From Zasmidium citrigriseum (Eukaryota; Ascomycota; Dothideomycetes; Mycosphaerellales; Mycosphaerellaceae), in assembly GCA_002786025.1 (NCBI GenBank), contig NHNW01000045.1, positions 186,001 through 250,000 on the forward strand: a stretch of DNA of 64,000 nucleotides, written 5' to 3'. Each line of letters begins with the position of its first letter. Positions within the stretch are counted from its first letter, which is position 1. This document shows positions 8,572 through 30,319 of the stretch, piece by piece. The position numbers and the translations under genes were made by a program. The notes under the pieces were generated by a model that had not been told where the DNA came from, made no database searches, and was given only the letters and a program-made list of their open reading frames with translations.

Positions 8572-9735
8572 ACGACATCACTCTCTGCTTTCTGTTCTTT
8601 GCATAGCGACGGGCGCTACCTGGGCGGCTTTCCGCATCGCCTTCGACCGGTCGCATGTTGCTTCTCTCGGCGCTGGGGTTTAGAAAGAGACTGCTGTTCC
8701 TTCGACGGCGTTCTCATTCGCATCGCCTGGCGCCACATTCTGGCGACTTGCTTTTGCTTTGCTTTTGCTTTTTCTTTTTATGATGCGAACGACTCACGGA
8801 TGACGAGCCCAGGAGACGGAACATGGGCGGGATACGATTGCTTTGCTTTGTACAATTAGAAGGGCCCGTAAGACCATCAGCGTGATGGCAGGGTAGAAAG
8901 TGTGCTGTAACAGTAGAAGAAAACGACTGGTTCGTCTTTCAAAAGACTTTTCCCATTTCCTTTCCACAGTATAGATGTTCAAGAGATGAAGACGTAAAGT
9001 CAACAATTGTGAAACGTAATCTTTGCCAAGTGAATCCTGAATCCTGAATGCACGGGCCTCTCTTCAGCTAGCCTCGGATAACGTTGAGGATTTTCCGTCG
9101 CGTCGACAACAACAACTCCATCCATCAATCAATGCCGCTCACCGCCGCCATTGTGCCACCCAGCCGGCACGCGTCTGCCATGTCGTGATACAACCTCCAG
9201 AGCCGCACAGCTGTCGTGCCGCCAAGGCGAACCACCACTGCTGTGCGCGGTCGAGAACGTGGCGGCCTCCATAGCCACCGATACGTCACCCTCTTCGTTC
9301 AGCTCGCAGGGCTCGAAAAGCTAGACGCCTGTCATTTTGAGTCACCGCCTGAAATGACCGGTGTCAGACAAGCAGAAAGACGTATGTCTAGCTGTCGTGG
9401 TCTGGCCATTGTCGCCCCTTCGTCATAGGCGAGTTTCGCTGCCGGCGCGTCCTTTATGACTCTAAGACACCGCCGCCTGTCAGGGTTTGGGTGCTCGTTT
9501 GGTCGTAACTTACATGTCTTAGCCTGATCTAGTCATGGTGATGGCCTATCATTGAGTGCTGCATTGCCTTATACTGGTGTTTTTCGCAGTTGAGACATAC
9601 ATACTAAAGAGCTCGGAGCTCGCTTGTTGTACTCGTTGCCTTGCATATTTATATCTATTTTTCGTTGCCTTGGCTCTGGGCAGGTAGCCTTCTTCATACC
9701 ACTGACAAGAACAACATAGAGAACAGGAGCGCACG
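8572..9735. other. Intergenic region with TTTGC-type pyrimidine repeat
   Basis: It holds the glycosyltransferase 3' region and the ABC-transporter promoter. A short imperfect (C/T)TTTTGC repeat at about 8747-8780 ends in a T-rich run, probably in the 3' UTR. Frames elsewhere are short and unsupported. Confidence 0.4.
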
Positions 9736-12351
9736 ATGGTCACGACACAAACGAGCACGGCCCTCGCGGCGCTACACTATGCAACCCCGATTGCGACCAT
9801 CGTCTACTTCCTCGCGGCTAAGACGACGGCGGCATGTCTCCTTCAACAGCCTTCGAAACATTCTGGAGCAAGATGGCGAAGATACCCTGCAATCTTACTG
9901 GCATTGGCTGTTGCTGTGACGGTCGTTGCTGAGGGTGTCACGACAATATCACAAGCATTTCAACAACCAGAGAATTCGCAATCGCAAGACTACATTACCT
10001 ACCTATTGCTACTCTTTGCTACCCACATCGGCTTGGCCTTAGGACTTATCGAAAATGACACTCCTATCTGGCATCAGTACCTCGGGGCTTGGTTTGTTGG
10101 TCTCTGCTTTGAGATCCCCATCATTGCGCTTCAAGGAGTGAGGATACCAACGAATGACTTTGCCAAAAGCCGGATGGCTTTCTGTGTTCTGAGGGCTTTC
10201 TTACTACTGGTGCTCAGCATCTTCACGGCCGTCTTCATGCTCAGCGATCGACATCGAAGTGTCAAGCTAGATGATGAGAGTGAGGCATTGCTGGCAGCAG
10301 AATCGAATGGGAACAACACCAACGGTCACATCAACGGACACGCGTCCAAGCCTGCTCCATCTCCTAACGACTCTCTCTTCATGGACGACGATTCGGAAAG
10401 CAGCAGCGACGAAGATGACGACGATGCCTTTGGGTTCGACTCGGACACTGAAGAGCCAGAACAGGACAAGAAACTCCGAGCACAGCAGAAGAAGCGACTA
10501 CAAGAAGCTGGCAGCTGGATCAGCTACCTTTCCGAATTCAAGATCTTCATACCAATGGTCTGGCCAAGTAAGCAACGCAGAGTGCAGGCTTGCATCTGTC
10601 TCGTCGGCATCTGCATTGTCGCAGAACGAATCCTGAACATTCTTGTTCCCCGACAACTTGGTTTCCTGACGGAAGATCTCACGACATTTGCCGGCACCGG
10701 AGTTGTGCCATGGCGCACGCTGGGATTCTGGGCGCTGTATGCAGCTCTGGGATCTCGGGCTGGTGTGCCGCTCATTCAGGAGCTGGCTCAGCTGCCCGTG
10801 CAGCAGTACGGCTACAAGGCTATTGCGACAATCTCTTTCCGTCACGTCATGACGCTATCAATGGACTTTCACAATGAGAAGAATTCTGGCGAACTGATGC
10901 GAGCTATCGAACAAGGTACGAATCTCCAGGATCTCGTTGGCTTCATGTTCTTCGAAGTCATGCCCATGTTCTTCGATCTGGTGGCGGCATTTGTCTACAT
11001 GTCGATTCTCTTCGATATCTACATGGCTATGATCCTTGTTGCTGTCGGCGTCGCGTACGTCTGGATTGGAGCTAAAGTCACGAGCTGGAGCATCAAGCAA
11101 CGACGGGAATACAACACAACCATGCGGCTCGAATCGAAGGTGCAGAACGAAGCGATCAACAACTGGCAGACCGTCTCACATTTCAATCGCGGCAAATACG
11201 AATCAGACAGGTACAGCGATACTGTGGACGTCTTCAACCGAGCCGAATGGCGATACTACCTGGCCTACGATCTTGGAGGTGGCGCTCAGTCCCTGGTCAT
11301 GTTCATCGGGCGAGTTGCGGCCACCGTGCTGGCTGTCTATCGCGTCTCCCAAGGCATGGTTCCCGTGCGGAACTTCGTTACACTGATCACATACTGGAGT
11401 GCCATTGAGGATCCGCTTGGCTACGTTTCGTACTCTGTACGCAAGATCACGTCCATGTTGACTGACTCGGAGCGTCTGCTGCAGCTGCTCACGACGAAGC
11501 CGAGTATCACCGATGCACCTGATGCGAAGCAGCTCGAAGTCACAAAGGGAGAAGTTGTCTTTGATCATATCGACTTTGCGTATGATCCTCGACGACCGAC
11601 TCTCAAAGACGTCGACTTCACCGTCAAACCAGGCCAGACAGTGGCCCTAGTAGGCGAGACAGGCGGTGGCAAGTCAACCATCTTGAAGCTGCTCTACCGA
11701 TACTACGACGTGAACTCTGGCGCCATTCGCATCGACGGCCAAGATATCCGCCAAGTCACTCTCGACAGCCTCCGAGACTCCTTCGGCATGGTCCCTCAGG
11801 ACCCCTCCCTCTTCAACTTCTCCATCATGGACAACATCCGCTACGCCCGTCTCGACGCCACGGACGAAGAAGTCCAAGACGCCTGCCGCGCAGCCGCGAT
11901 CCACGACAAAATCCTCTCCTTCCCCGACGGCTACGCCGCCAAAGTCGGCGAGCGCGGCGTGAAACTCTCAGGCGGCGAACTCCAACGCATCGCCATCGCG
12001 CGAGCCATCGTCCGTCGACCGAAAATCGTCCTCCTCGACGAAGCGACGAGTATGATCGATGCCGAGACTGAGGCCGTGATCCAGGGGGCTTTCAAGAGAC
12101 TTACCGCGGACCGAACGACTTTTATTGTCGCGCATCGGTTGAGTACGATTCAGCATGCGGATTTGATTTTGGTGGTGCAGGATGGGGTTGTTGTTGAGAG
12201 GGGGACGCATGAGGAGTTGTTTAGGAGGAAGGAAGGGAAGTATTTTGCGCTTTGGTCGAAGCAGTTGAGTAAGGATACTGCTGGTGGGGAGGGGGATTTG
12301 ATTGGAGGGGTTGGGGATGAGGAGAGTACGAGTAGTGATGATGAGGAGTAG
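9736..12351 (+). CDS. HMT1: ABC half-transporter, HMT1/ABCB6 type
   Basis: An 871-aa ABC-B half transporter in one uninterrupted frame. The N-terminus has about five predicted membrane segments (residues 10-170), the extra domain typical of fission-yeast Hmt1 and ABCB6. An acidic Ser/Asp/Glu linker (about 215-240) and a six-helix exporter domain (about 270-560) follow. The nucleotide-binding domain has Walker A GETGGGKST (640-648), signature LSGGE, Walker B IVLLDEAT (about 764-771) and an H-loop in IVAHRLST. Hmt1 moves phytochelatins or glutathione conjugates into the vacuole and confers cadmium tolerance; that substrate is inferred from family only. The C-terminus is acidic and Ser-rich. Confidence 0.9.
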   Translation: MVTTQTSTALAALHYATPIATIVYFLAAKTTAACLLQQPSKHSGARWRRYPAILLALAVAVTVVAEGVTTISQAFQQPENSQSQDYITYLLLLFATHIGLALGLIENDTPIWHQYLGAWFVGLCFEIPIIALQGVRIPTNDFAKSRMAFCVLRAFLLLVLSIFTAVFMLSDRHRSVKLDDESEALLAAESNGNNTNGHINGHASKPAPSPNDSLFMDDDSESSSDEDDDDAFGFDSDTEEPEQDKKLRAQQKKRLQEAGSWISYLSEFKIFIPMVWPSKQRRVQACICLVGICIVAERILNILVPRQLGFLTEDLTTFAGTGVVPWRTLGFWALYAALGSRAGVPLIQELAQLPVQQYGYKAIATISFRHVMTLSMDFHNEKNSGELMRAIEQGTNLQDLVGFMFFEVMPMFFDLVAAFVYMSILFDIYMAMILVAVGVAYVWIGAKVTSWSIKQRREYNTTMRLESKVQNEAINNWQTVSHFNRGKYESDRYSDTVDVFNRAEWRYYLAYDLGGGAQSLVMFIGRVAATVLAVYRVSQGMVPVRNFVTLITYWSAIEDPLGYVSYSVRKITSMLTDSERLLQLLTTKPSITDAPDAKQLEVTKGEVVFDHIDFAYDPRRPTLKDVDFTVKPGQTVALVGETGGGKSTILKLLYRYYDVNSGAIRIDGQDIRQVTLDSLRDSFGMVPQDPSLFNFSIMDNIRYARLDATDEEVQDACRAAAIHDKILSFPDGYAAKVGERGVKLSGGELQRIAIARAIVRRPKIVLLDEATSMIDAETEAVIQGAFKRLTADRTTFIVAHRLSTIQHADLILVVQDGVVVERGTHEELFRRKEGKYFALWSKQLSKDTAGGEGDLIGGVGDEESTSSDDEE

Positions 12352-16504: not shown

Positions 16505-16973
16505 ATGCAATTCCTCTTCGCCCTCCTTCCCTTCTTGATCCCCCTCACCCTGGCAGACCGCCCCTTAAATATTCCCAAACCCCACGAACAAAGCTGCATA
16601 GGCAATCAAGACGGCTCAATTCTGCACTATATTACCCTGATCGGCGAGCCCTACAACGACGTCCGGTGCGACGCAGCTCGTGACCAGGTCAAAGAGAGAG
16701 CGGATTTCACGGCCTGGTATTGCGCGTGGGCGCCGGACTATGAGACAACTCGTGAGTTGTGACGGCGTGGGAAGTATTGGGGCTTTAAGTGGCTGATGGC
16801 TTTTGCGGCTAGATACTATTATAAGGTTACATACGACCAAGTGGCACGCGGATGCGATTAATGAGATTTTTGGGTGGACTTGGCCTGAGGTTAATGGGTG
16901 TGAGTATCTTCTTGTGTGACTTTGAGGGAGGAATTGCTGATGTGGTTGTGTAGTCAATTGTCCGGACTTTTGA
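16505..16973 (+). CDS. Small secreted Cys protein, array gene A
   Basis: A 117-aa candidate secreted protein, first of four tandem paralogues. Exons are 16505-16751, 16813-16899 and 16954-16973 (introns 61 and 54 nt, both phase 1). The signal peptide is about residues 1-17 (MQFLFALLPFLIPLTLA). The mature protein has four cysteines, in SCIGN, RCDAA, WYCAW and the C-terminal FNCPDF. Shared family features are an ITLIGEPYN-like block before RCDAA and the end EVNGFNCPD. Four cysteines, a signal peptide and small size fit a fungal effector or defence protein, but no known family is recognised and function is unknown. Exon 3 has only 20 nt, and its place is confirmed by the identical arrangement in genes B and D. 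Confidence 0.75.
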
Positions 16974-17273
16974 ACTTGGTACGGTGATATTGAGGCTGCT
17001 TGATTGTGCTTTGAAGTTCGCAGTCTTCCAACTTGCTGCTTGTGTTCGAGGATCAGGGGTGTTCGGCGATTTTGACTCGCTCAGAATGATTTGATATCAA
17101 TGAGGAAAGTACGACGATGCCTGGAGCAATTTAGTGATTTGTGAGCGTAGGATCGGCACTAAGGTACTATCAAGAAACGAAGTTGCGTTTGTACTACCTT
17201 CGAAGCAAGAGCTGCCTCGAACACTGCAAGAGCCTTTTGAGCCATGGCAAGAACCATGTTTCCCTACCGTCGC
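16974..17273. other. Spacer between array genes A and B
   Basis: It contains the 3' region of gene A and the upstream region of gene B. No other gene is seen. Confidence 0.4.
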
Positions 17274-17279
17274 TATATA
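17274..17279 (+). promoter_or_regulatory. Putative TATA box of secreted-protein gene B
   Basis: TATATA lies 71 bases before the ATG of array gene B, nearly the same spacing as in genes A and D. Confidence 0.45.
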
Positions 17280-17344
17280 GTCCCCCTTACTCGCACAATC
17301 CTGCAAGCACCCGCGAACTCCAACCCCACAGCCTCGCAGCAAAC

Positions 17345-17736
17345 ATGCACCTCGCCCACCTCATCACGTTCCTCCCGTTCGCCCTCGCCACGCCCCTTAC
17401 CCGACGTCTGGCCCCCAACACCCAATCCTGCCACGTCCAAGGCGACTTCCACGTTCTCTGGTACATCATCGAAATCGGCGAGCCTTTCAACCAAGCACGC
17501 TGCGATGCGGCCCATGATGGGATTAAGGATACGATTGGGTTTGATATGTGGAATTGTATGGGGTATCATGGGCATACGCTGGTGAAGTTTCATACGGATG
17601 TCAGGGGCATGGGGGTGGCTGTGAATACGGTTTTGGGGGAGACGTGGCCGGAGGTTAATGGTTGTGAGTATTACTTGCTCTATTCGGAGTGTTGGATGAT
17701 ATTGACGAGATGGTAGTCAATTGTCCGGATTACTGA
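17345..17736 (+). CDS. Small secreted Cys protein, array gene B
   Basis: A 112-aa paralogue of gene A. Exons are 17345-17663 and 17717-17736; the 53-nt intron (GTGAGT, TAG, phase 1) matches the last intron of A and D. The signal peptide is MHLAHLITFLPFALA, followed by a possible dibasic processing site (TRR). Cysteines lie in QSCHV, RCDAA, WNCMG and FNCPDY, in register with gene A. The block WYIIEIGEPFN before RCDAA and ETWPEVNGFNCPD at the end closely follow gene A. The first intron of A and D is absent here, with the frame continuous across the site. The frame is also open upstream, but the ATG at 17345 is the only one giving a signal peptide. Confidence 0.75.
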
Positions 17737-17996
17737 GCTAGTGTGACTGGCGAGGTTGAGACTGGAGGTTGGATGTGATGTTGCACACGGCTGTACGGCT
17801 GCTACAAGGCTTTACAAATATCAGGTGTTACAACAGTGCCACGAGTGTGCGTAATTTGATTTGAATAAGATGAGCAGAGCAAACAATCGGTTTATACCAT
17901 GTACTTGAAGAAGCTCCATTCTTGTTTCATTGGAGCGAGGCCAGCTGTTGTACTCTCCCTCCCAGAAAGCAGCCAAAGCCGTCAAATGATACCAAG

Positions 17997-18420
17997 ATGC
18001 AACTCATCACCACACTACTCATCGTCTTGCAGACTGCCCTCGCCTTTGCCGCGTCAAATTCTACCGAGCCATGCACGTACAAACCCGTCTCACCCAACAC
18101 CCAAACCTGTACCGCCACAGCCGGCGCGAACAATACCCTCTGGTACATCATCAAGATCGGAGATTCCTCAGAAGGATGTCCCACGACAAGGTTCTTCTTC
18201 GAGGAGGGAGGCTTTGACATGCTCAATGGATTCCAGTGCGAGGGTGTCATGAACAGTGAGATTGTTCCTTGCTCGCAGAGAGACTCAGACTGATCGTGAT
18301 TTAGACACTCGGATCGTGTTCCAGACCACGCCTGGTAATGCGGAAGACATCAATTGGACGCTTAACTACACTTGGAGAGGGCTGGAGAGTGAGTTCGACT
18401 GTCCTGACTCAGCTCAGTGA
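17997..18420 (+). CDS. Small secreted Cys protein, array gene C
   Basis: A 124-aa, more diverged paralogue. Exons are 17997-18255 and 18305-18420; the 49-nt intron (GTGAGA, TTTAG, phase 1) sits where intron 1 of A and D lies. The signal peptide is about residues 1-19 (MQLITTLLIVLQTALAFAA). Cysteines lie in EPCTY, QTCTA, EGCPT, FQCEG and FDCPD; the block WYIIKIGD matches gene B. Several N-glycosylation sequons are present (NST, NNT, NWT, NYT). The last intron of A, B and D is absent. The frame reads through a GTGAGT-like sequence straight into FDCPDSAQ and stop, with one extra residue compared with the paralogues. Confidence 0.7.
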
Positions 18421-18727
18421 GGGAGTTCTAAGTAGCGATGATTGTACGATTAAGCATTTGGAGATTCGAGTGATTGTGGAAGTTGAAAGCGATTCAAGAA
18501 GTGTTAGAGCGATTATATCAGCACCAATGCTCCTTCAAAACGACTTCGACCTCGCCACTGATCTCCATATCGCTCTTTAGCAAGTCATGACCGGGGCCAG
18601 CTCACCAATAGCTGGGTCTAGATGGTCCAAGAGAATGACCGCAACCTCTACAGCCTGATTTCAAGCACCATCCCCTCCCTCGCAACGTCCCACTGCAACG
18701 ATGCAGCAAACACGCTCCCTACTAGCC
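18421..18727. other. Spacer between array genes C and D
   Basis: No gene is seen. It contains the gene C 3' region and the gene D upstream region. Confidence 0.4.
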
Positions 18728-18733
18728 ATAAAT
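18728..18733 (+). promoter_or_regulatory. Putative TATA-like element of gene D
   Basis: ATAAAT lies 69 bases before the ATG of gene D. It is weaker than the elements of A and B, but at a matching distance. Confidence 0.3.
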
Positions 18734-18796
18734 CAAATCCCATCCAACGAACTCCCCATCTCGATCTCGCCACCATCCACACACTCCCCACGCACA

Positions 18797-19278
18797 ATGA
18801 AACCCCAATCTCAAATCCCCTTCCTCCTAACCGTCCTTCCTTTTGCCCTCGCCCATTCACCCCTGGCAACGCGTGACCGCCCCTTCGAAAACAGCGTCGA
18901 AGACGGCGCACAATCCTGCGTCGGCAAAATGAAAGGCGAAGCAGTCCACTACCACACCCGCATAGGCATGGACTGGGACAGGGCGAAATGCGATGAAGCG
19001 TGGCATGCGATTGAAGAGGGGGCGTGGGATTTTGATTGTGAAGAGGATCATGATGGTCGTGAGTTATAATTCTGTGTTTTGTGTTTTGATTGGGGTTGGG
19101 GTTGCTGATTGGTGATAGACTTTTTGATAGACTTTTGGTTGAGGTGGTATAATGGGGATTGGTTGAATCAGCAGTTGGAGAGTGTGTTTACGGAGATCAA
19201 TGGCTGTGAGTATGAAAGTGATCTTGACCCGATGTTGGAGCTAACAGTCTTGTGTTAGTCAATTGCCCGGATTACTAG
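18797..19278 (+). CDS. Small secreted Cys protein, array gene D
   Basis: A 122-aa paralogue with the same three-exon plan as gene A: 18797-19058, 19119-19205 and 19259-19278. Exons 2 (87 nt) and 3 (20 nt) are the same lengths as in A. The signal peptide is within residues 1-20 (IPFLLTVLPFALAHS), followed by a possible processing region with TRDR. Cysteines lie in QSCVG, KCDEA, FDCEE and FNCPDY. Exon 2 has two possible acceptors 12 bases apart (ending 19118 and 19130), both TAG and both in frame, so two isoforms differing by four residues are possible. The first keeps the exon length seen in gene A. Function unknown. Confidence 0.75.
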
Positions 19279-22449: not shown

Positions 22450-22978
22450 ATGTGTTACGATGGGCTTTTGAAGAGACAGAGCACTGGCGTTTGGCGCATG
22501 CAAACTGGATACCGGGAGCTGTGTCTGTACAGATTGTTTGTATACCTACATCGTTCTGAAAGCGCCAACAATTGCCATACAAGGTGCAGACTGGTACAAC
22601 TGTTCTGTATGCCTGCTACTGCTGCCAATAAACGTGGCTTGGTTGGAGCTAAATTTGGCTCACGGCAAGTGGAACCGCGGCCAGCACCTTCTTTCCACCA
22701 CACGCCTCCTTTCTGTATCACTTCGCTTGCACATCGTTACCATCTATTTGCATACGCCAACCGCTTGGCCCCAAAATGGCTCTTTTCGCTGCATCCGCCC
22801 AGTGGGAGGACGACGAGGTTGCTCGTGCGTGTGCATGGAGGCCGCCGTGCGGCTGAGAGAGGCCCACACGCCCACCAGGGCCACCACCATTTAGCCGGCA
22901 TGCAAATCATTGTCGATAAGATGCCTCGAAGCGCCCAGCCTCAGACGTCTGGTTATTTGACCCTCGACGCTTTTCCAG
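22450..22978. other. Intergenic region before the NLR-like gene
   Basis: It holds the 3' region of the Gly-rich protein gene and the promoter of the NLR-like gene. A plus-strand frame runs through it but lacks any domain, and I do not call it. Confidence 0.35.
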
Positions 22979-25900
22979 ATGGCGTCGTCTGCGGTCGACA
23001 AACCGAACACCATGACTTCTTTCTCGGCGGAAGACGATCTCGAGAAAGTGTGGGATGAGGTAATCATCAAGTGCAACAAGATCACTAAATGGGACCTGAA
23101 CGAGAAGGGCAACGTCACCATCGACCAGATTCTCTCCAAAATCAATCAGCCGAAGAACCCAAAGCCCGAGGTCAAGGATAAGGCCAAAAAAGTCTTCAAC
23201 AATGCCCTGGTCTGCGTGCAGAGATTTGGATGTTTGATTGCACAGAGCGCCAACGTGGTTTTTGGACCGAGCCAGCAATGTTTCAATGCCATTTCCTTCG
23301 TCATCAACGCGGTCCAGGACTACGATGCGGTCTTCAATAATCTTACCGTACTCATGGAGAGGGTGTCGACTTTCCTCGAAAGACTAAGGGTGTTTCTGGA
23401 CGACACGGAGGCCGAGATCAAGCTGGACAAGCGACTTCGGCGGGCTGTCTACGACGTTCTGGATCACTTCATCACCATCATGGGTCTTGCTCATCGACTG
23501 ACTCGCGGATGGAAAGGAAAGTTGAAGCTTGCTGCAAAGATCGGCGCGTTTGGTGAAGATGATGGCGTGAGAGATGCCATGGCGAGACTGGAGACCCTGA
23601 TTTCGAACGAAACCGACATGGAGATCTCGGTCATTGCAAAGGACTTGAGCGAGGCCGCTAAGAACATTCGTGGAATGGACAAGAAACTGGACCAGATCGC
23701 AGATGCCCAGGAGAAGACCAACCGGGATGTTGGTCATCTTGTAACCGCTGAACAGCGCCGAGCTGCAGACGAAGAAGAGAAGAAACGTTTGGGCAAAATC
23801 CGAGAAGTTCTGAACATCGATGCCACCAAGCGACCCTGGGTTGATAGGCAAGATGAGCTCCAAGACAAGCACATTGAAGGCACTGGAGACTGGCTGTTGA
23901 AGTACCGTTCATTCTCGAGATGGTCGAACCCGAACGAGCTCAGCACCAAAGTCCTCACAATTAAGGCAAACGAGGGATATGGGAAGAGCCATCTTTGCAG
24001 CATCGTCATCAGCCATCTGCAAGAGAAGCATCGCGAGGATCCTCGCGTGGTCGTGGCATACTACTACTTTCAAAGAGACGTGCAGGACAAGAACCCCGTC
24101 AACAAGGCCATGAAAACTATTATCTATCAGCTGGTATCTGCGTCCACATCAGTCGCGCGGGAGTACGCCAAATTAGTGCACAAGGCATGCGAACGCAAAA
24201 CTGACTTTGGCAAGACGACATACCTTTGGGAGCGACTGATTGCGGATTTGTGCAAAAGTCTGGACGCGACTTTCTTCATTTTGCTCGATGGTGTCGATGA
24301 AGATGAGGTCGAGCCACTCGCTAACATTGTCAGCCAGGTGCTCTCAGCACAAGAAGATTCGCAACTCAAGATTCGCCTCTTCATGACCGGCCGGCCCAAC
24401 GGGCTCGACAGTCTAGCTCGCCATGTTTCTCACGAGGTGGGAAGCGAGATCCCGGAGATCACTATCGCTCGCGCACAGCCATCACTGAATCAAAGTGACA
24501 TCATGCTGTATGCGGAACAGCGACTGAACGACATGGACATCTTCAAATACGACGACAAAGAAAATGCCAATCTGGAGGGGCGCCGAACCAAAGTCGTTGA
24601 TTTGAAAGAGCGTGCAAGAAATGAGCTCGGCGAGGGCGTTCAAGGGGACTACTTTGCCCTCGACATGAAGCTGAATGAGCTCAGCCAAAGTCGCACGTTT
24701 CGTGATGTTGAGGAGACTCTGAGTCTCGCTCAGGAAGACAGGTCTCAGGCTATTGCTCGGGAGATCAACCAGCTCAACGAGAATTTGCGTGAAGACGAGA
24801 TACAAGAGGTCAATACCTTGCTCGCGTGGCAGAGTGTCTGCTATCAAAATTTCTCCGTGGACCAGTTTGAGGCAGTACTGAGACTAGAGGCAGACGACTG
24901 GTCCCTCGTGTCTTTGGCCAAACAGATCAGCGATCGCTACTCCTCACTGTTCGACGTCTCTGATGGGAAGAAGCCAGAAGAAAAGATCGTCACACTCAAG
25001 TCCTACGACATCAAAGAGTACTTGCGAGAAAAAGACGAAACGCCTTCCTCTCGATACAACGTCAGTCGTCGACCGGACACCGCACTTTCAGAAGGCGAGG
25101 TCACACTTGTGAAGAGGATCTTGAAGACGCACTTTCTCAACATCTTCGGTGCTGACGACATGTACGAAAAATTCGGGTTTGATGACTTCTTTGAATCGAA
25201 AGTAACTAATCAAGCCTCTCGCATCCGGTTGGTGGCAGATTTCGAAAACCATACCAGAGTCGCACAGGCTTGTTTGACAGTCACTTGTGACCACCCGGAC
25301 GAAGATGCCTATCGGAGCCTGCGTAGCTATTCTTTCGACTGGTTCGCCTTCCATCTGGGGTTCCTGCGTTTCTCTCTGGAAGACATAGACACGCCGACAA
25401 AGCAAGACATTGGCCGAAAGCTCGTTCGCATGCTACGCGACGAAAGACTCATCAGCACCTGGTGGACAGAGTCTTCGATGTTGATCCAACAATGGGCATA
25501 CGAAAAATGGTGCATCGATGTCGTGGGGTCGTGGCTGAGGGACCCTATCGTCCAAAAAAGTTGCTCCGATACGCCCTCCGAGCGTCAATGGGTTGCACAG
25601 ACAACGGGGACGACGGCAGATCTTGACTCTCCTATTAGGCTCTTGGAGACTGTGGCTCAGTACGTAGCACGGCAATGGTTTGCGCGAGAGCCTGGAAGAT
25701 GGTATGATGCCTTTGTCTTCCTTCGTGGATATCTCAGTCTCGTATGTGCGCCTTGATATTCACAATCCTGTTCTTCACTAACATTCATCTTAGCTAGAGC
25801 GCAAGGAACCGGACTACTGGACTGATCCGACCGCTGAGGATGCTGGTGTCGTCGAAGCATGGGCCCGGGAAGCTGTTCCGGGTGTTGAGGAAGTAGCTCG

Positions 25901-27869
25901 TCACCGTTGTCTGGCCGAGACCTTTTACGGGATTGATTGCTTCAAAGAGTCTATCGTTAGATTTCGGGAGGCCTTGCAAATCACACCCAAGGAACCGATA
26001 CCAGATCATTGGAGGATAGTATTTGGACTTGCACGAGCCCTTGGAATGAACAGAGAGCACAAGGAGGCAGTACAGACCCTCGAGAAGCTCATCGATGATA
26101 ATCCAGACCTTCATACAGAGGACCAGGAGTTTGAGGATGCTTATTGGGACCAGATGCTTGATCTGATCGGCGAATGGAACATCGAGTTGAACAAATTTGC
26201 TGCTGCGGAGCTAACATACCAGAAGATGCTCGACGAATGCAAGACTAAGCTAAGATTCGAATTCTTCGGGAAGAACGCAGCTCTGATGATGACAAAAGTG
26301 CTGAACCTGCAATCCAAGCACCAGGAAACGATTGACCTTTTGCTTGACCTGGAGAGTCGAGTAGACGCGGATAGAGGGAATCGGCTCTCTGCTTTACTCC
26401 ACTTCTACGCAGGCACCGATGAGCTACACCACCGCATCTTCACGGCCGCTCATAATGTCGACCAATGGCGAGACTTAACAGAGAAGTACCATGTCGTTGT
26501 AGACTCTCTTCGTTCAAACGACTTGGAGTTCGGTGCTTACATGCATTTGCGATACTGGCTGGGGTTGTTGCTGTGGGCCCAACCAACTCGTGAAGAGAAC
26601 GAGGCTGCCCTGGATATGTGGGAAGAGGACTTGAATGCAGAGGTGCCAGAAAGCGCGGATGACAGCAACCTGGTGAACTGGGCCCGAACCATGATGGCAC
26701 CAAGGCTCGCAGTTGCACTCCTTGATTCCGCGAAACACGTTGGGTTGAGCACACCCTTGAGTCCGGCTGCTGAGGAGTACGCCACTCGATTGGAGAAGTT
26801 GACGCATGGCGATCCGGACTACGTTCGCGGCACGTTCGACGATGTTCGCATCACACTTGCTCGGCTCCATCATCTTGCTGGCGATGATGGAGGGGCGAAA
26901 GATATCGTGCGTGATTTATTGCGAACCGGGATACAGATCTTTGAAGAGCAGGATTTTGAGGATTGTAAGGACGGGCTGTATCGAATCGCTGTCGTGCTGC
27001 AGGCGATGGATGACGATGTCAATGCGATTGCGGCCTGGCGATGCTTCAAACCGAAATCGCGGGATGGCAGCGATGATAGTAGCAGCAGTAGCAGCGAGGA
27101 TGGACGAAGTAGCGTAGGCAAAGTGGATAAAGAGACGGCCAGTGTGAGTGCTACTCAAAGTGTCGCAGACGAGAGGGAAGGGCAGGGAGATGAGCAGGCT
27201 GCAGCAGGCGCAGAGCGAGATGGCGACTCAGACTTTGTCGCAGATGACCTGAACCACAAGGAACAAGAAAGTGGCGGCCACGAAGGTCTGACAGACAGCG
27301 AGCAAGAGAAACCGCCAGAGACAGACCCCCAGGACTTAGATCAGGTTGAAAAGGAGGGCTCTAACCAAGAAACCCTTCCAGAAGACTTGAACGACGATCC
27401 AGCACAAGCAGATAAAAGCTCCATCCATACCCTCGACGACGACATTCCGGACGGTATCCTCGACAACCACTGCATCGGCATGTGCGGCACCACCTGGACC
27501 TACGTCGACAACCTCTACTCCTGCAAAGACTGCCTCGACTTCCAGTTTGAAGCGAACTGCTACGAAAAACTGCAGAACGGGACTCTCAACCCCACAATCT
27601 GCAACAAGAACCATACTTTCATTCACATTCCGCCTTTTGACAAGGAGAAGTGGCTTGCTTTGGCGGAGGATGAGATGTGGGTTGGTGAGGAGGTCGTGAA
27701 GATTAAGGATTGGCTTGAGGGGATCAAGAGGGAGTGGCAGTTGGATGAGGAGAGTTTGAGGGCGAGGGAGAAGAAGATGTCGGCGGCGAAGAAGATCCAG
27801 ATGGCTTGGAGAGTGTGGAAAGCGATGCGGCGAGACGGGACTGCTTCTTCAGCTGCTGCAGATGGATAG
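22979..27869 (+). CDS. NLR-like STAND NTPase: Goodbye, NTPase, TPR-like, ZZ finger, IQ
   Basis: A 1612-aa protein from exons 22979-25741 and 25794-27869 (52-nt intron, GTATGT and CTTAG, phase 0). Residues about 20-150 look like a fungal STAND N-terminal Goodbye domain; a helical, coiled-coil-prone linker runs to about 280. The NTPase domain has ANEGYGKS (about 330-337) as Walker A, lacking the usual first Gly, and FFILLDGVDE (Walker B Asp about 437). Residues about 930-1360 are helical with TPR-like repeats. An acidic Ser/Glu/Asp-rich stretch (about 1370-1470) is followed by a ZZ-like zinc finger from Cys1481 (C-x3-C, C-x2-C and further Cys/His) and an IQ-like motif KKIQMAWRVWKAMR near 1590. 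By family logic it is an intracellular sensor, as in fungal heterokaryon incompatibility. Its ligand is unknown. Confidence 0.85.
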
Positions 27870-28175: not shown

Positions 28176-28453
28176 TCAATGATTTTCGAGATTCTTGAGA
28201 ACACGATCCTTCAAGGTGGCAATGCAACAATTCTTGGGGGCTTCTGGAGAAACCGTGCCAACTTGGGGCTCGTACTTCAGCCTTTGCGGCCTTGAGACTG
28301 TTCTAGACCGCAGTATTCGCGGCGAATCACCTTTGGCTCTCGACGCCACGATCGACGCCGCAGAGCCGCCTACTCTGGCTTGTTGCTTTTCAGCCGTACC
28401 TCTGGAGACCGCATCAATCAACACAGTTAGCATATCTCTATCGCGGCTCGAAC

Positions 28454-30319
28454 ATGTGGCTCTTAAACGTCCGTACCCTCGCATTGGAGTACTTTAATGG
28501 ACCGGAGAACGTGAGATACGCCATCCTCTCTCACACTTGGGGGCAGGAAGAGGTCACCTTCCAGGAAATCAAAGACGGCTCGGGCCTTGATAAGAAGGGA
28601 TATCAGAAAATCGTCAAGACCTGCCAGCAAGCTCTCAAGGATGGCTTTGGTTTTGCCTGGATCGACACTTGTTGCATCAACAAGGAGAGCAGTGCCGAGC
28701 TCACAGAGTCTATCAATTCGATGTGGCAGTGGTATTGTTACGCAGAAGTCTGCTATGCTTACTTGTCAGACGTCGAGTCCATCTCTGGTGAGTTGAGCGA
28801 TGAGAATCATCCGGACTTTGCCCGTGACGGTGCAGTGATTGATGCGAACGGCCATGGTGGACTTTCTCAAAGCAGATGGTTCACTCGAGGGTGGACGCTG
28901 CAAGAGCTCATCGGTAAGGTCCCAACCCCCCAACAATGTCCAAGCTCGTCCTTTCCTCATCAGTGCTAATCTTCACTCGTAGCTCCATCGGACTTGATTT
29001 TCTTCGACGCAGCCTGGTGTCCACTAGGCAAGAAGGCAAAAATGTTACGAACGCTGTCGCAAATAACCAGGATCGACGCCCCAGTACTACAATCTCGAGG
29101 AAAGCTTTCGAACTATGTTATCGCCAGGAAGATGTCCTGGGCCGCTGAACGAACAACGACCAGGCTGGAAGACCGTGCTTACTCACTCTTCGGAATTTTC
29201 GGCGTGAACATGCCTCTTTTGTATGGAGAGGGCGCAAGGGCATTCATCAGGCTCCAGGAAGAGATCGTTAGGACGTCGACCGATCATAGCATATTCGCCT
29301 GGAGCAATTCCTTCTTTCGTTCGCGGGATTTCATGGGTAAAACAAGGGATCTGATATTCGCTTCATCTCCCCGTAACTTCGCCAACTGCGGAAGGATGGT
29401 TGGCTGGACGACCAACCTGTTTGATGAAGACTATCGCCTGACGAACCGTGGTATCGCGTTCGAGGGCCTCCTCTTCTTTGAGACGAAAGAAGATTCTTTC
29501 GCGTTCCTGAACTGTCGGTATGAAGATAACTTCAGGGGCGCAATTGCTCTGCGTCTAAGCAACAGAGACGAGGACACGACAACGATCGAGTCTCACCTCA
29601 AAAAAGTCCGCGGTAGAAACGATTTCTGGATCAAGAACTTGCGTGAGCGATTCATCGTCTATAGTCCAGATCGAGAGGCGCGGAAGTCAAGTCGAAAGTT
29701 CACACTCCTCAGGTATCGTCCACCCAGGCAGAATGGCGAGAGGTTCAAGCCAGAAATGTTCGGTTACGAGCTGCCAAAGTTTTGGCTGGTCATCTCGTCG
29801 TCAAGTTCGGAGAGATTCGAAATCGTGGACTCTTACCCGAAGGCCCTTTGGAATCATTCGACAGCGGTCATGTGCCCTCCCATCTCGCTGGAGGACGATC
29901 CCTCGGCTCGTTGGCGATCTGGCCTAGGAGACGTGTCGGTCCTGATTGAGACTACACGATCCAAGACCAGATTTTACCTCACGTTTGTGGCTGAAGAGCT
30001 AGCATCTAAAGGCAGAAGCTCAGTGATCTCTGCACATCCCCAACGAGACAATAGATTCGTGTGTGCCAAAGCCACTGGTGGGAAAGCATACATTGATACA
30101 GAAGCTCCTGTGCCTGGAGTATCGGCAACATGCGCGCCCCCGAAAGAAATTTATGGTGATGTAGTATGTGTGATCACGATAACAATAGGGGATGAAAGGG
30201 CCAACAGCAGCACAACAGATCGCAAGTCCACGAAAAGAGTCTCTGACCCCTTCAAGAGGCGCGGGGCAACGCGAGACGAAGTTCAGGATCTGAACCTACT
30301 GTTCGAAAGGACGGAGTAG
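28454..30319 (+). CDS. HET-domain (heterokaryon incompatibility) protein
   Basis: A 598-aa protein. Exons are 28454-28913 and 28983-30319 (69-nt intron, GTAAGG and CGTAG, phase 1). All three HET blocks are clear: YAILSHTWGQEEVTF (about 22-36), FAWIDTCCINK (about 72-82) with SINSMWQWY and CYAYLSDV, and SRWFTRGWTLQELIAP (about 141-156, split by the intron). RAYSLFGIFGVNMPLLYGEG, a typical downstream element, follows near 235. The C-terminal 340 residues are diverged and carry no domain I recognise. HET domains trigger programmed cell death on non-self recognition. It lies 0.58 kb downstream of the NLR-like gene on the same strand, which suggests, but does not prove, a sensor-executor relationship. 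Confidence 0.9.

What the first reader, a model, noticed from the sequence alone, without database searches (positions are those of the whole stretch)
16505..19278. Tandem array of four small secreted Cys proteins ending in F-N/D-C-P-D
Four same-strand genes of 112-124 aa share a signal peptide, an I-x-IG block, an R/K-C-D-x-A block (absent in C), a Cys near the middle and a C-terminal FNCPD or FDCPD. Sequence identity is low apart from these blocks, so they have diverged quickly, as effector or defence families do. I recognise no named family. The shared phase-1 introns and exon lengths (87 and 20 nt in A and D) show common ancestry directly.
Basis: partly seen in the sequence, partly recalled or inferred. 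Interest (0 to 1): 0.85.

Follow-up and report, generated by a model that had tools for sequence, protein, structure and literature searches.

The report
Four-cysteine secreted fungal protein family
A row of four small, probably secreted fungal proteins belongs to an unnamed protein family whose single building block also occurs, in the same genome, strung together two, six or eight times in long precursors that look as if they are cut apart before secretion.

Summary
Window 16505-19278 carries four same-strand gene models (117, 112, 124, 122 aa) with the stated C-termini and phase-1 introns. Leave-one-out profiles recognise each one, C included, above all of 500 shuffles that keep the cysteines in place. 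The signature is four invariant cysteines plus I-G and N, not only FNCPD.

The array is a part of the family. The same genome holds at least 12 loci with 25 copies of the domain: nine one-domain genes (four here) and three precursors with 2, 6 and 8 copies. Two relatives from unnamed public sequence, one with 7 domains, share it. Pfam, NCBIfam and PDB profiles give no credible match.

LxxR or KR/RR, the reported Kex2 motif, precedes 17 of 32 domains; shuffle mean 3.2. Best reading: disulfide-stabilised domains matured by kexin and acting outside the cell, as effectors or killer toxins do. A KP6-like fold is plausible but undecided.

No function is shown. New variant of a known kind.

The parts
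16505..16751 (+). gene A exon 1 (N-terminal hydrophobic stretch, Cys1-Cys3)
   Evidence: splice search, the only model among 35 that ends in CPD; profile match E 3.5e-10
16550..16561 (+). gene A LADR, a possible LxxR site at the end of the signal-peptide region
   Evidence: read from sequence; outside the stretch counted, where A counts as having no site
16752..16812 (+). gene A intron 1, phase 1
16813..16899 (+). gene A exon 2 (87 nt)
   Evidence: family-profile match in six-frame scan, E 2.8e-4
16900..16953 (+). gene A intron 2, phase 1
16954..16973 (+). gene A exon 3 (20 nt, FNCPDF stop)
   Evidence: inside a 27-nt DNA repeat shared with B and D
17345..17663 (+). gene B exon 1 (106 of 112 residues)
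   Evidence: profile match E 1.6e-19
17396..17407 (+). gene B LTRR, possible kexin site, 7 residues between it and Cys1
17664..17716 (+). gene B intron, phase 1, same column as intron 2 of A and D
17717..17736 (+). gene B exon 2 (20 nt, FNCPDY stop)
   Evidence: shared DNA repeat
17997..18255 (+). gene C exon 1
   Evidence: profile match E 1e-5
18256..18304 (+). gene C intron, phase 1, same column as intron 1 of A and D
18305..18420 (+). gene C exon 2 (ends FDCPDSAQ stop)
   Evidence: profile match E 1.8e-6
18797..19058 (+). gene D exon 1
   Evidence: profile match E 8.5e-11
18863..18874 (+). gene D LATR, possible kexin site, 14 residues between it and Cys1
19059..19118 (+). gene D intron 1, phase 1 (alternative acceptor before 19131)
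19119..19205 (+). gene D exon 2 (87 nt)
   Evidence: profile match weak, E 0.024
19206..19258 (+). gene D intron 2, phase 1
19259..19278 (+). gene D exon 3 (20 nt, FNCPDY stop)
   Evidence: shared DNA repeat

Best explanation
The four genes are one-domain members of an unnamed fungal family of secreted four-cysteine domains, probably of a two-layer alpha/beta kind. Each protein is probably made with a signal peptide and a short propeptide, passes the Golgi where a kexin cuts after Arg at LxxR or a dibasic site, folds with two disulfides, and is released as a domain of some 80-100 residues that acts outside the cell. The target is most likely a competing microbe or a host, in the manner of fungal effectors and killer toxins. 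The same domain is also made as 2-, 6- and 8-domain precursors with the same kind of site in many linkers, so one transcript could yield several different mature domains. Shown from sequence: family, domain, architecture, shared intron columns of the predicted models, enrichment of the motif. Inferred: secretion, disulfides, cleavage, fold. Guessed from class: the role outside the cell.
For: Four Cys, I-G and N invariant in 8 of 8 one-domain proteins. In the 23 domains that I marked in four precursors the four Cys are spaced 23-33, 18-20 and 35-52 residues apart. A profile of these 23 finds 9 of 9 one-domain proteins above all of 200 shuffles each; hhalign of the one-domain alignment against six C94 domains gives 98.5% over 74 columns. 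LxxR or KR/RR with 5-16 residues between its Arg and Cys1 stands in 17 of 32 propeptides or linkers, shuffle mean 3.2, at most 9 in 5000 shuffles; the motif occurs 22 times in 819 linker residues and 7 times in 2991 domain residues. A kexin-type P domain is encoded in the genome. Kex2 removes effector propeptides in vitro, also at non-canonical sites, and LxxR is the expanded motif used to find them (PMC8528282, section 3 and passages). C94 and the 7-domain P0001 pair up in the same order by reciprocal best identity: d2-d3, d3-d5, d4-d6, d6-d7; the tree joins the first three pairs and leaves the fourth open.
Confidence: 0.5

Rival explanations
1. The long members work uncut, as multivalent extracellular binding proteins (for instance wall or glycan binders) whose domains act together; the one-domain genes are monovalent versions, and the Arg-bearing linkers are only flexible spacers.
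For: Linkers between domains vary from 17 to 102 residues; 15 of 32 lack the strict motif, both C59 domains among them; domain order is kept between C94 and P0001, as in a working multi-domain protein.
Against: Placed enrichment of LxxR/KR just before Cys1 and its rarity inside the domains. One-domain members with the same motif ahead of the domain (B, D, C88 in the count; C68 by reading).
Confidence: 0.27
2. Ordinary secreted proteins of the fungus's own wall or development, with no role in interaction; moderate divergence is simply age.
For: The array lies between genes with ordinary domains (DEAD/helicase, DAGK_cat); copies lie on many contigs; relatives are of unknown lifestyle.
Against: Tandem duplication, 27-48% identity between neighbours and small size with four Cys are common in interaction proteins (general knowledge), but none is decisive.
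Confidence: 0.2
3. Degenerate or spurious reading frames that look alike by chance.
For: No known family; C finds no relative by pairwise search.
Against: Leave-one-out profiles and shuffles, shared intron columns, and P0002, a relative of the C88 member (55% identity) with the same C-terminus.
Confidence: 0.02

Closest known systems
Kex2-processed pro-domain (K2PP) effectors, e.g. SnTox3, ToxA, SIX1/4/6 (PMC8528282, section 3 and passages read)
   Same: Small secreted proteins with a short stretch ending in LxxR or a dibasic site ahead of the domain (B, D, C88 here)
   Different: No sequence relation tested; here the same kind of site also lies between several domains of one precursor; cleavage not shown
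KP6-like fold proteins: KP6, Zt-KP6-1, AvrLm6-like, SIX5/SIX14, Ecp28 (PMC9632046 and PMC10942635, passages read)
   Same: Size, enough Cys for two disulfides, and in a low-confidence model two helices and four strands; KP6 itself comes as two subunits from one Kex2-cut precursor (recalled)
   Different: No KP6-type chain among the rows shown; no credible PDB profile hit; no direct sequence comparison with KP6 proteins made
KEPs, Kex2-processed repeat proteins (PMC6339444, PMC7329392: search listing with start of abstract; PMC8528282 section 3)
   Same: Secreted precursor with repeats separated by Kex2-type sites
   Different: KEPs repeat identical or nearly identical motifs that give peptides; here the repeats are whole domains of about 80-100 residues, in C80 no pair above 53% identical
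Two fused yeast killer toxin-like domains in rust fungi (PMC9816061, passages read)
   Same: More than one small secreted toxin-type domain in a protein
   Different: Two domains, in a cluster that includes Ecp2 (PF14856); here up to eight, with no PF14856 match

Membership tests
K2PP effectors | N-terminal signal peptide on a small secreted protein | tested here: inconclusive
   Hydrophobic N-termini in A-D by hydropathy; no signal-peptide predictor available
K2PP effectors | KR, RR or LxxR between signal peptide and mature domain | tested here: inconclusive
   3 of 9 one-domain proteins by the strict rule, 5 of 9 by the broad rule; in the window B and D yes, A and C not counted
K2PP effectors | propeptide removed by Kex2 | not testable with these tools
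   needs biochemistry
KP6-like fold | 2-4 disulfides | tested here: inconclusive
   four invariant Cys allow two; bonds not tested
KP6-like fold | two helices and 4-6 strands in a KP6 topology | tested here: inconclusive
   model of P0002, pLDDT 57, pTM 0.45: E E H E E H after a signal helix; window B exon 1, pLDDT 48, same order
KP6-like fold | structural match to KP6 or Zt-KP6-1 | tested here: inconclusive
Ecp2/Hce2 (PF14856) | match to the Pfam profile | tested here: not met
   no match for 4 window proteins at E<=10 or for 10 relatives at E<=1 (C80 by its main exon, C94 and C59 short of one or two end residues)
KEPs | tandem identical or near-identical short repeats | tested here: not met
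   repeats are domains of about 80-100 residues; within C80 the best pairs are 50 and 53% identical
KEPs | Kex2-type sites between repeats | tested here: inconclusive
   strict site before 5 of 6 domains in C94, 5 of 7 in P0001, 4 of 8 in C80, 0 of 2 in C59 (first domains included); cutting not tested

The most novel reading that the evidence does not exclude
A fungal system of killer-toxin-like polyproteins: one precursor releases two to eight different folded four-cysteine domains through kexin sites, like a protein-sized version of the KEPs, while tandem one-domain genes such as A-D are the same domains set free as single genes. In C59 two domains flank a helical amphipathic stretch bracketed by two KR sites, an order that recalls the alpha-gamma-beta precursor of KP6 (recalled, not from a call).
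Probability: 0.25. Interest if true: 0.75.

Novelty: new variant of a known kind. Interest (0 to 1): 0.5.

Why it matters
Most small secreted fungal proteins lack a known domain (over 95% by a passage of PMC10462633) and many stay single puzzles. Here a weak-looking four-gene array ties, by sequence alone, to multi-domain precursors whose regular four-cysteine spacing defines the domain. If the precursors are cut as the linkers suggest, one gene delivers up to eight different domains, which would link two processes that PMC8528282 treats as separate classes: propeptide removal from effectors and release of short peptides from repeat proteins. It also gives a profile for finding the family in other fungi; the long forms would be missed by pipelines that drop proteins over 300 residues, as that of PMC10462633 does (passage).

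Tried and rejected
Named family: Pfam gave nothing for A, B and D and two sub-threshold rows for C (TIG, DUF3937) at E<=10, and only scattered sub-threshold rows for ten relatives at E<=1; NCBIfam gave none for three. Profiles of eight one-domain proteins and of six C94 domains found 0 and 3 PDB sequences at E<=10, the three all an actin-like ATPase at E 1.5.

Public relatives: gene B found none (no candidate sharing three words). The C94 and C88 proteins found one each, P0001 and P0002 (in one search only the 7998 best candidates were scored), from a source that gives no organism.

Tree of 32 domains, unrooted: A, B and C group (97/88), D does not join them with support; the label 'window' needs two changes, reached by 60 of 500 shuffles, so the array is not shown to be one clade. 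C and four others have long branches.

Position: no transposon search was made; only composition and local repeats; no conclusion.

Print: searches listed no paper that, by title, start of abstract or the passages I read, describes this family. Only looked for the C-terminal letters: four papers, on unrelated subjects by title, not opened. The library holds open-licence papers only. Organism not identified; Goodbye/NPHP3_N and HET ORFs fit a filamentous ascomycete (recalled).

Not in the counts: the C68 gene was found late and is in no alignment, tree or motif count. P0001 has six cysteines beyond the 28 that I assigned to domains, C80 one in its signal region. The C59 stretch was picked by eye before its moment was tested, so its 7 of 5000 is not corrected for that choice.

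Full report
What is in the window. The DNA at 16505-19278 holds four short gene models on the + strand, each with a hydrophobic N-terminus (hydropathy). A search over GT/AG combinations gives the models: A 117 aa (three exons), B 112 aa (two), C 124 aa (two), D 122 aa (three). They end FNCPDF, FNCPDY, FDCPDSAQ and FNCPDY. Every intron is phase 1 and 49-61 nt long. Placed on the domain alignment, the intron ahead of the T-x-I-x-F strand is shared by A, C and D, and the intron just ahead of FNCPD by A, B and D; B has lost, or never had, the first and C the second. The longer DNA repeats among the four genes fall in their coding blocks and reach into the splice sites.

Chance. Whole-genome searches with exon 1 of each gene link A with B (2.1e-10, 2.8e-10) and A with D (9.2e-7, 4.5e-7). 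B and D do not list each other at E<=1, and C lists only itself and one match of E 0.14. Profiles built without the tested protein recognise all nine one-domain proteins (window A-D, C116, C88, C122, C85, P0002) at 36.2 to 94.1 bits, while 500 shuffles each with cysteines held in place reach at most 16.3 bits; C and C122 are the weakest, at 36.2 and 36.7. A scan of 1879 stop-to-stop frames of the window with the whole-family profile, which includes these proteins, finds seven exon frames of A-D (E 1.6e-19 to 0.024), then nothing until E 2.2, so no fifth copy is seen here.

The family. The window lies on contig C89 of a 44.4-Mb genome. Searches with the window genes and with relatives found further loci. 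One-domain genes open without introns lie on C116 (120 aa), C88 (116), C85 (127), C122 (124) and C68 (134); C68 was found late and is not in the 32-domain alignment, tree or motif counts. Three loci encode long proteins: C94, 726 aa, six domains, one exon; C80, 943 aa after removal of three predicted introns, eight domains; C59, 321 aa, two domains. That is 12 loci and 25 domains, lower bounds because the search scores only its best candidates. In the public protein collection C94 (given without its Met) has one relative, P0001 (813 aa, seven domains, 36% identity), and the C88 protein has one, P0002 (132 aa, 55%), both from a source without organism names; gene B had none.

The domain. In the eight one-domain proteins first aligned, the invariant columns besides Met1 are Cys, Ile-Gly, Cys, Cys, Asn and Cys. 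In the 23 domains that I marked in the four precursors the cysteines are spaced 23-33, 18-20 and 35-52 residues apart (the cysteines of C94 and C59 are all used, C80 has one more in its signal region, P0001 six more). The alignment reads C ... Y-x-I-x-IG-x-PF ... C ... C ... T-x-I/L-x-F ... vN-x-aL ... yP ... C. hhalign of the one-domain alignment with six C94 domains gives 98.5% probability over 74 columns, and a profile made only of precursor domains scores each one-domain protein above all its 200 shuffles, C lowest at 21.1 bits against 7.4. In the unrooted tree the window genes, C116, C85, C88, P0002 and the last domain of C80 form one supported group (97/91); the domains of C94, P0001 and C59 with C122 form another (96/90). 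A, B and C group together (97/88); D's place is open. C94 and P0001 pair in the same order by reciprocal best identity (d2-d3 63%, d3-d5 62%, d4-d6 42%, d6-d7 38%); the tree joins the first three pairs (93/95, 100/99, 83/78) and leaves the last open; C94 d1 and d5 and P0001 d1, d2 and d4 have no such partner. I infer that a many-domain precursor existed before the two parted.

Maturation. LKAR stands in 4 of 5 inter-domain linkers of C94 (the fifth has LSTR) and in 3 of 6 of P0001 (the others have VKSR, EKR and LLSR). C80 has LSVR, LAAR, LAPR, PPAR and LAAR, each with exactly six residues between it and the next first cysteine. I counted sites with 5-16 residues between the Arg and the first cysteine, with signal-peptide ends set by eye: LxxR, KR or RR in 17 of 32, shuffle mean 3.2, at most 9 in 5000 shuffles; with L, I, V, A, P, M or F at P4, 22 of 32 against a mean of 9.3 and at most 19. 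The strict motif occurs 22 times in 819 residues of linkers and propeptides, 7 times in 2991 residues of domains. Sites are missing from 15 of 32 by the strict rule, among them window genes A and C and both C59 domains. A review states that Kex2 wants Arg at P1, prefers Lys at P2 but varies, and Leu or another aliphatic residue at P4, and that dibasic sites and LxxR were used to find effector propeptides; some were cut in vitro despite non-canonical motifs (PMC8528282, section 3 and passages). Ala at P2, as in LKAR, is not among its favoured residues. A kexin-type P domain is encoded on C61. I infer kexin processing; it is not shown.

C59 deserves a note. Between its two domains lie 102 residues with two KR sites, and from the first to the end of the second a 36-residue stretch with net charge +2 whose best 18-residue helical moment, 0.68, is reached by 7 of 5000 shuffles of itself (the stretch was picked by eye). 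A released helical peptide is possible.

Meaning. The most likely role is that of the class: secreted, disulfide-held domains acting on competitors or a host. Duplication in an array, dispersed copies and divergence agree with this, but would also fit other secreted proteins. The array sits between a DEAD-box helicase gene and a gene with a DAGK_cat domain. Nothing here shows expression, virulence or antimicrobial action.

Novelty. Ten literature searches in an open-licence library listed no paper that I could recognise as describing this family (listings and passages only). Nearest ideas in print are propeptide-bearing effectors, short-peptide repeat precursors (KEPs), and a two-domain killer-toxin-like fusion in rusts (PMC9816061, passages). 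Precursors of up to eight four-cysteine domains with kexin-type words in many linkers differ from each, hence 'new variant of a known kind'.

Noticed in passing
window 22961-27866 (+): Fungal STAND/NLR-like gene pieces: Goodbye (PF17109) and NPHP3_N (PF24883) in ORF 22961-25753, then a TPR ORF 25794-27866 that may belong to the same gene.
   Followed up: partly
window 28307-30319 (+): HET-domain ORF 28307-28966 (PF06985, E 4.5e-15), followed by ORF 28970-30319, next to the STAND gene: two gene types tied to fungal non-self recognition side by side (the tie is recalled).
   Followed up: no
L057:4142-5104 (own genome C59:32641-33603): Two-domain family member whose 102-residue linker holds an amphipathic 36-residue stretch ending in one KR and preceded by another.
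   Followed up: partly
L020:4743-7759 (own genome C80:233742-236758): Eight-domain member; its last domain groups with the window-type genes (97/91, on a long branch), ends FNCPGT, and its introns lie at other places than those of A-D, so one-domain and precursor forms may have exchanged.
   Followed up: partly
L062 (own genome C68:22293-22664): Further one-domain member ending FNCPTSIYNP with LEAR shortly before its first Cys; a weak sub-threshold Pfam match of its first 33 residues to the mating factor alpha precursor N-terminus (E 0.03).
   Followed up: no
window 9706-12348 (+): ABC transporter ORF (ABC_membrane plus ABC_tran, 881 aa); reads like a vacuolar heavy-metal tolerance type by recall.
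   Followed up: no
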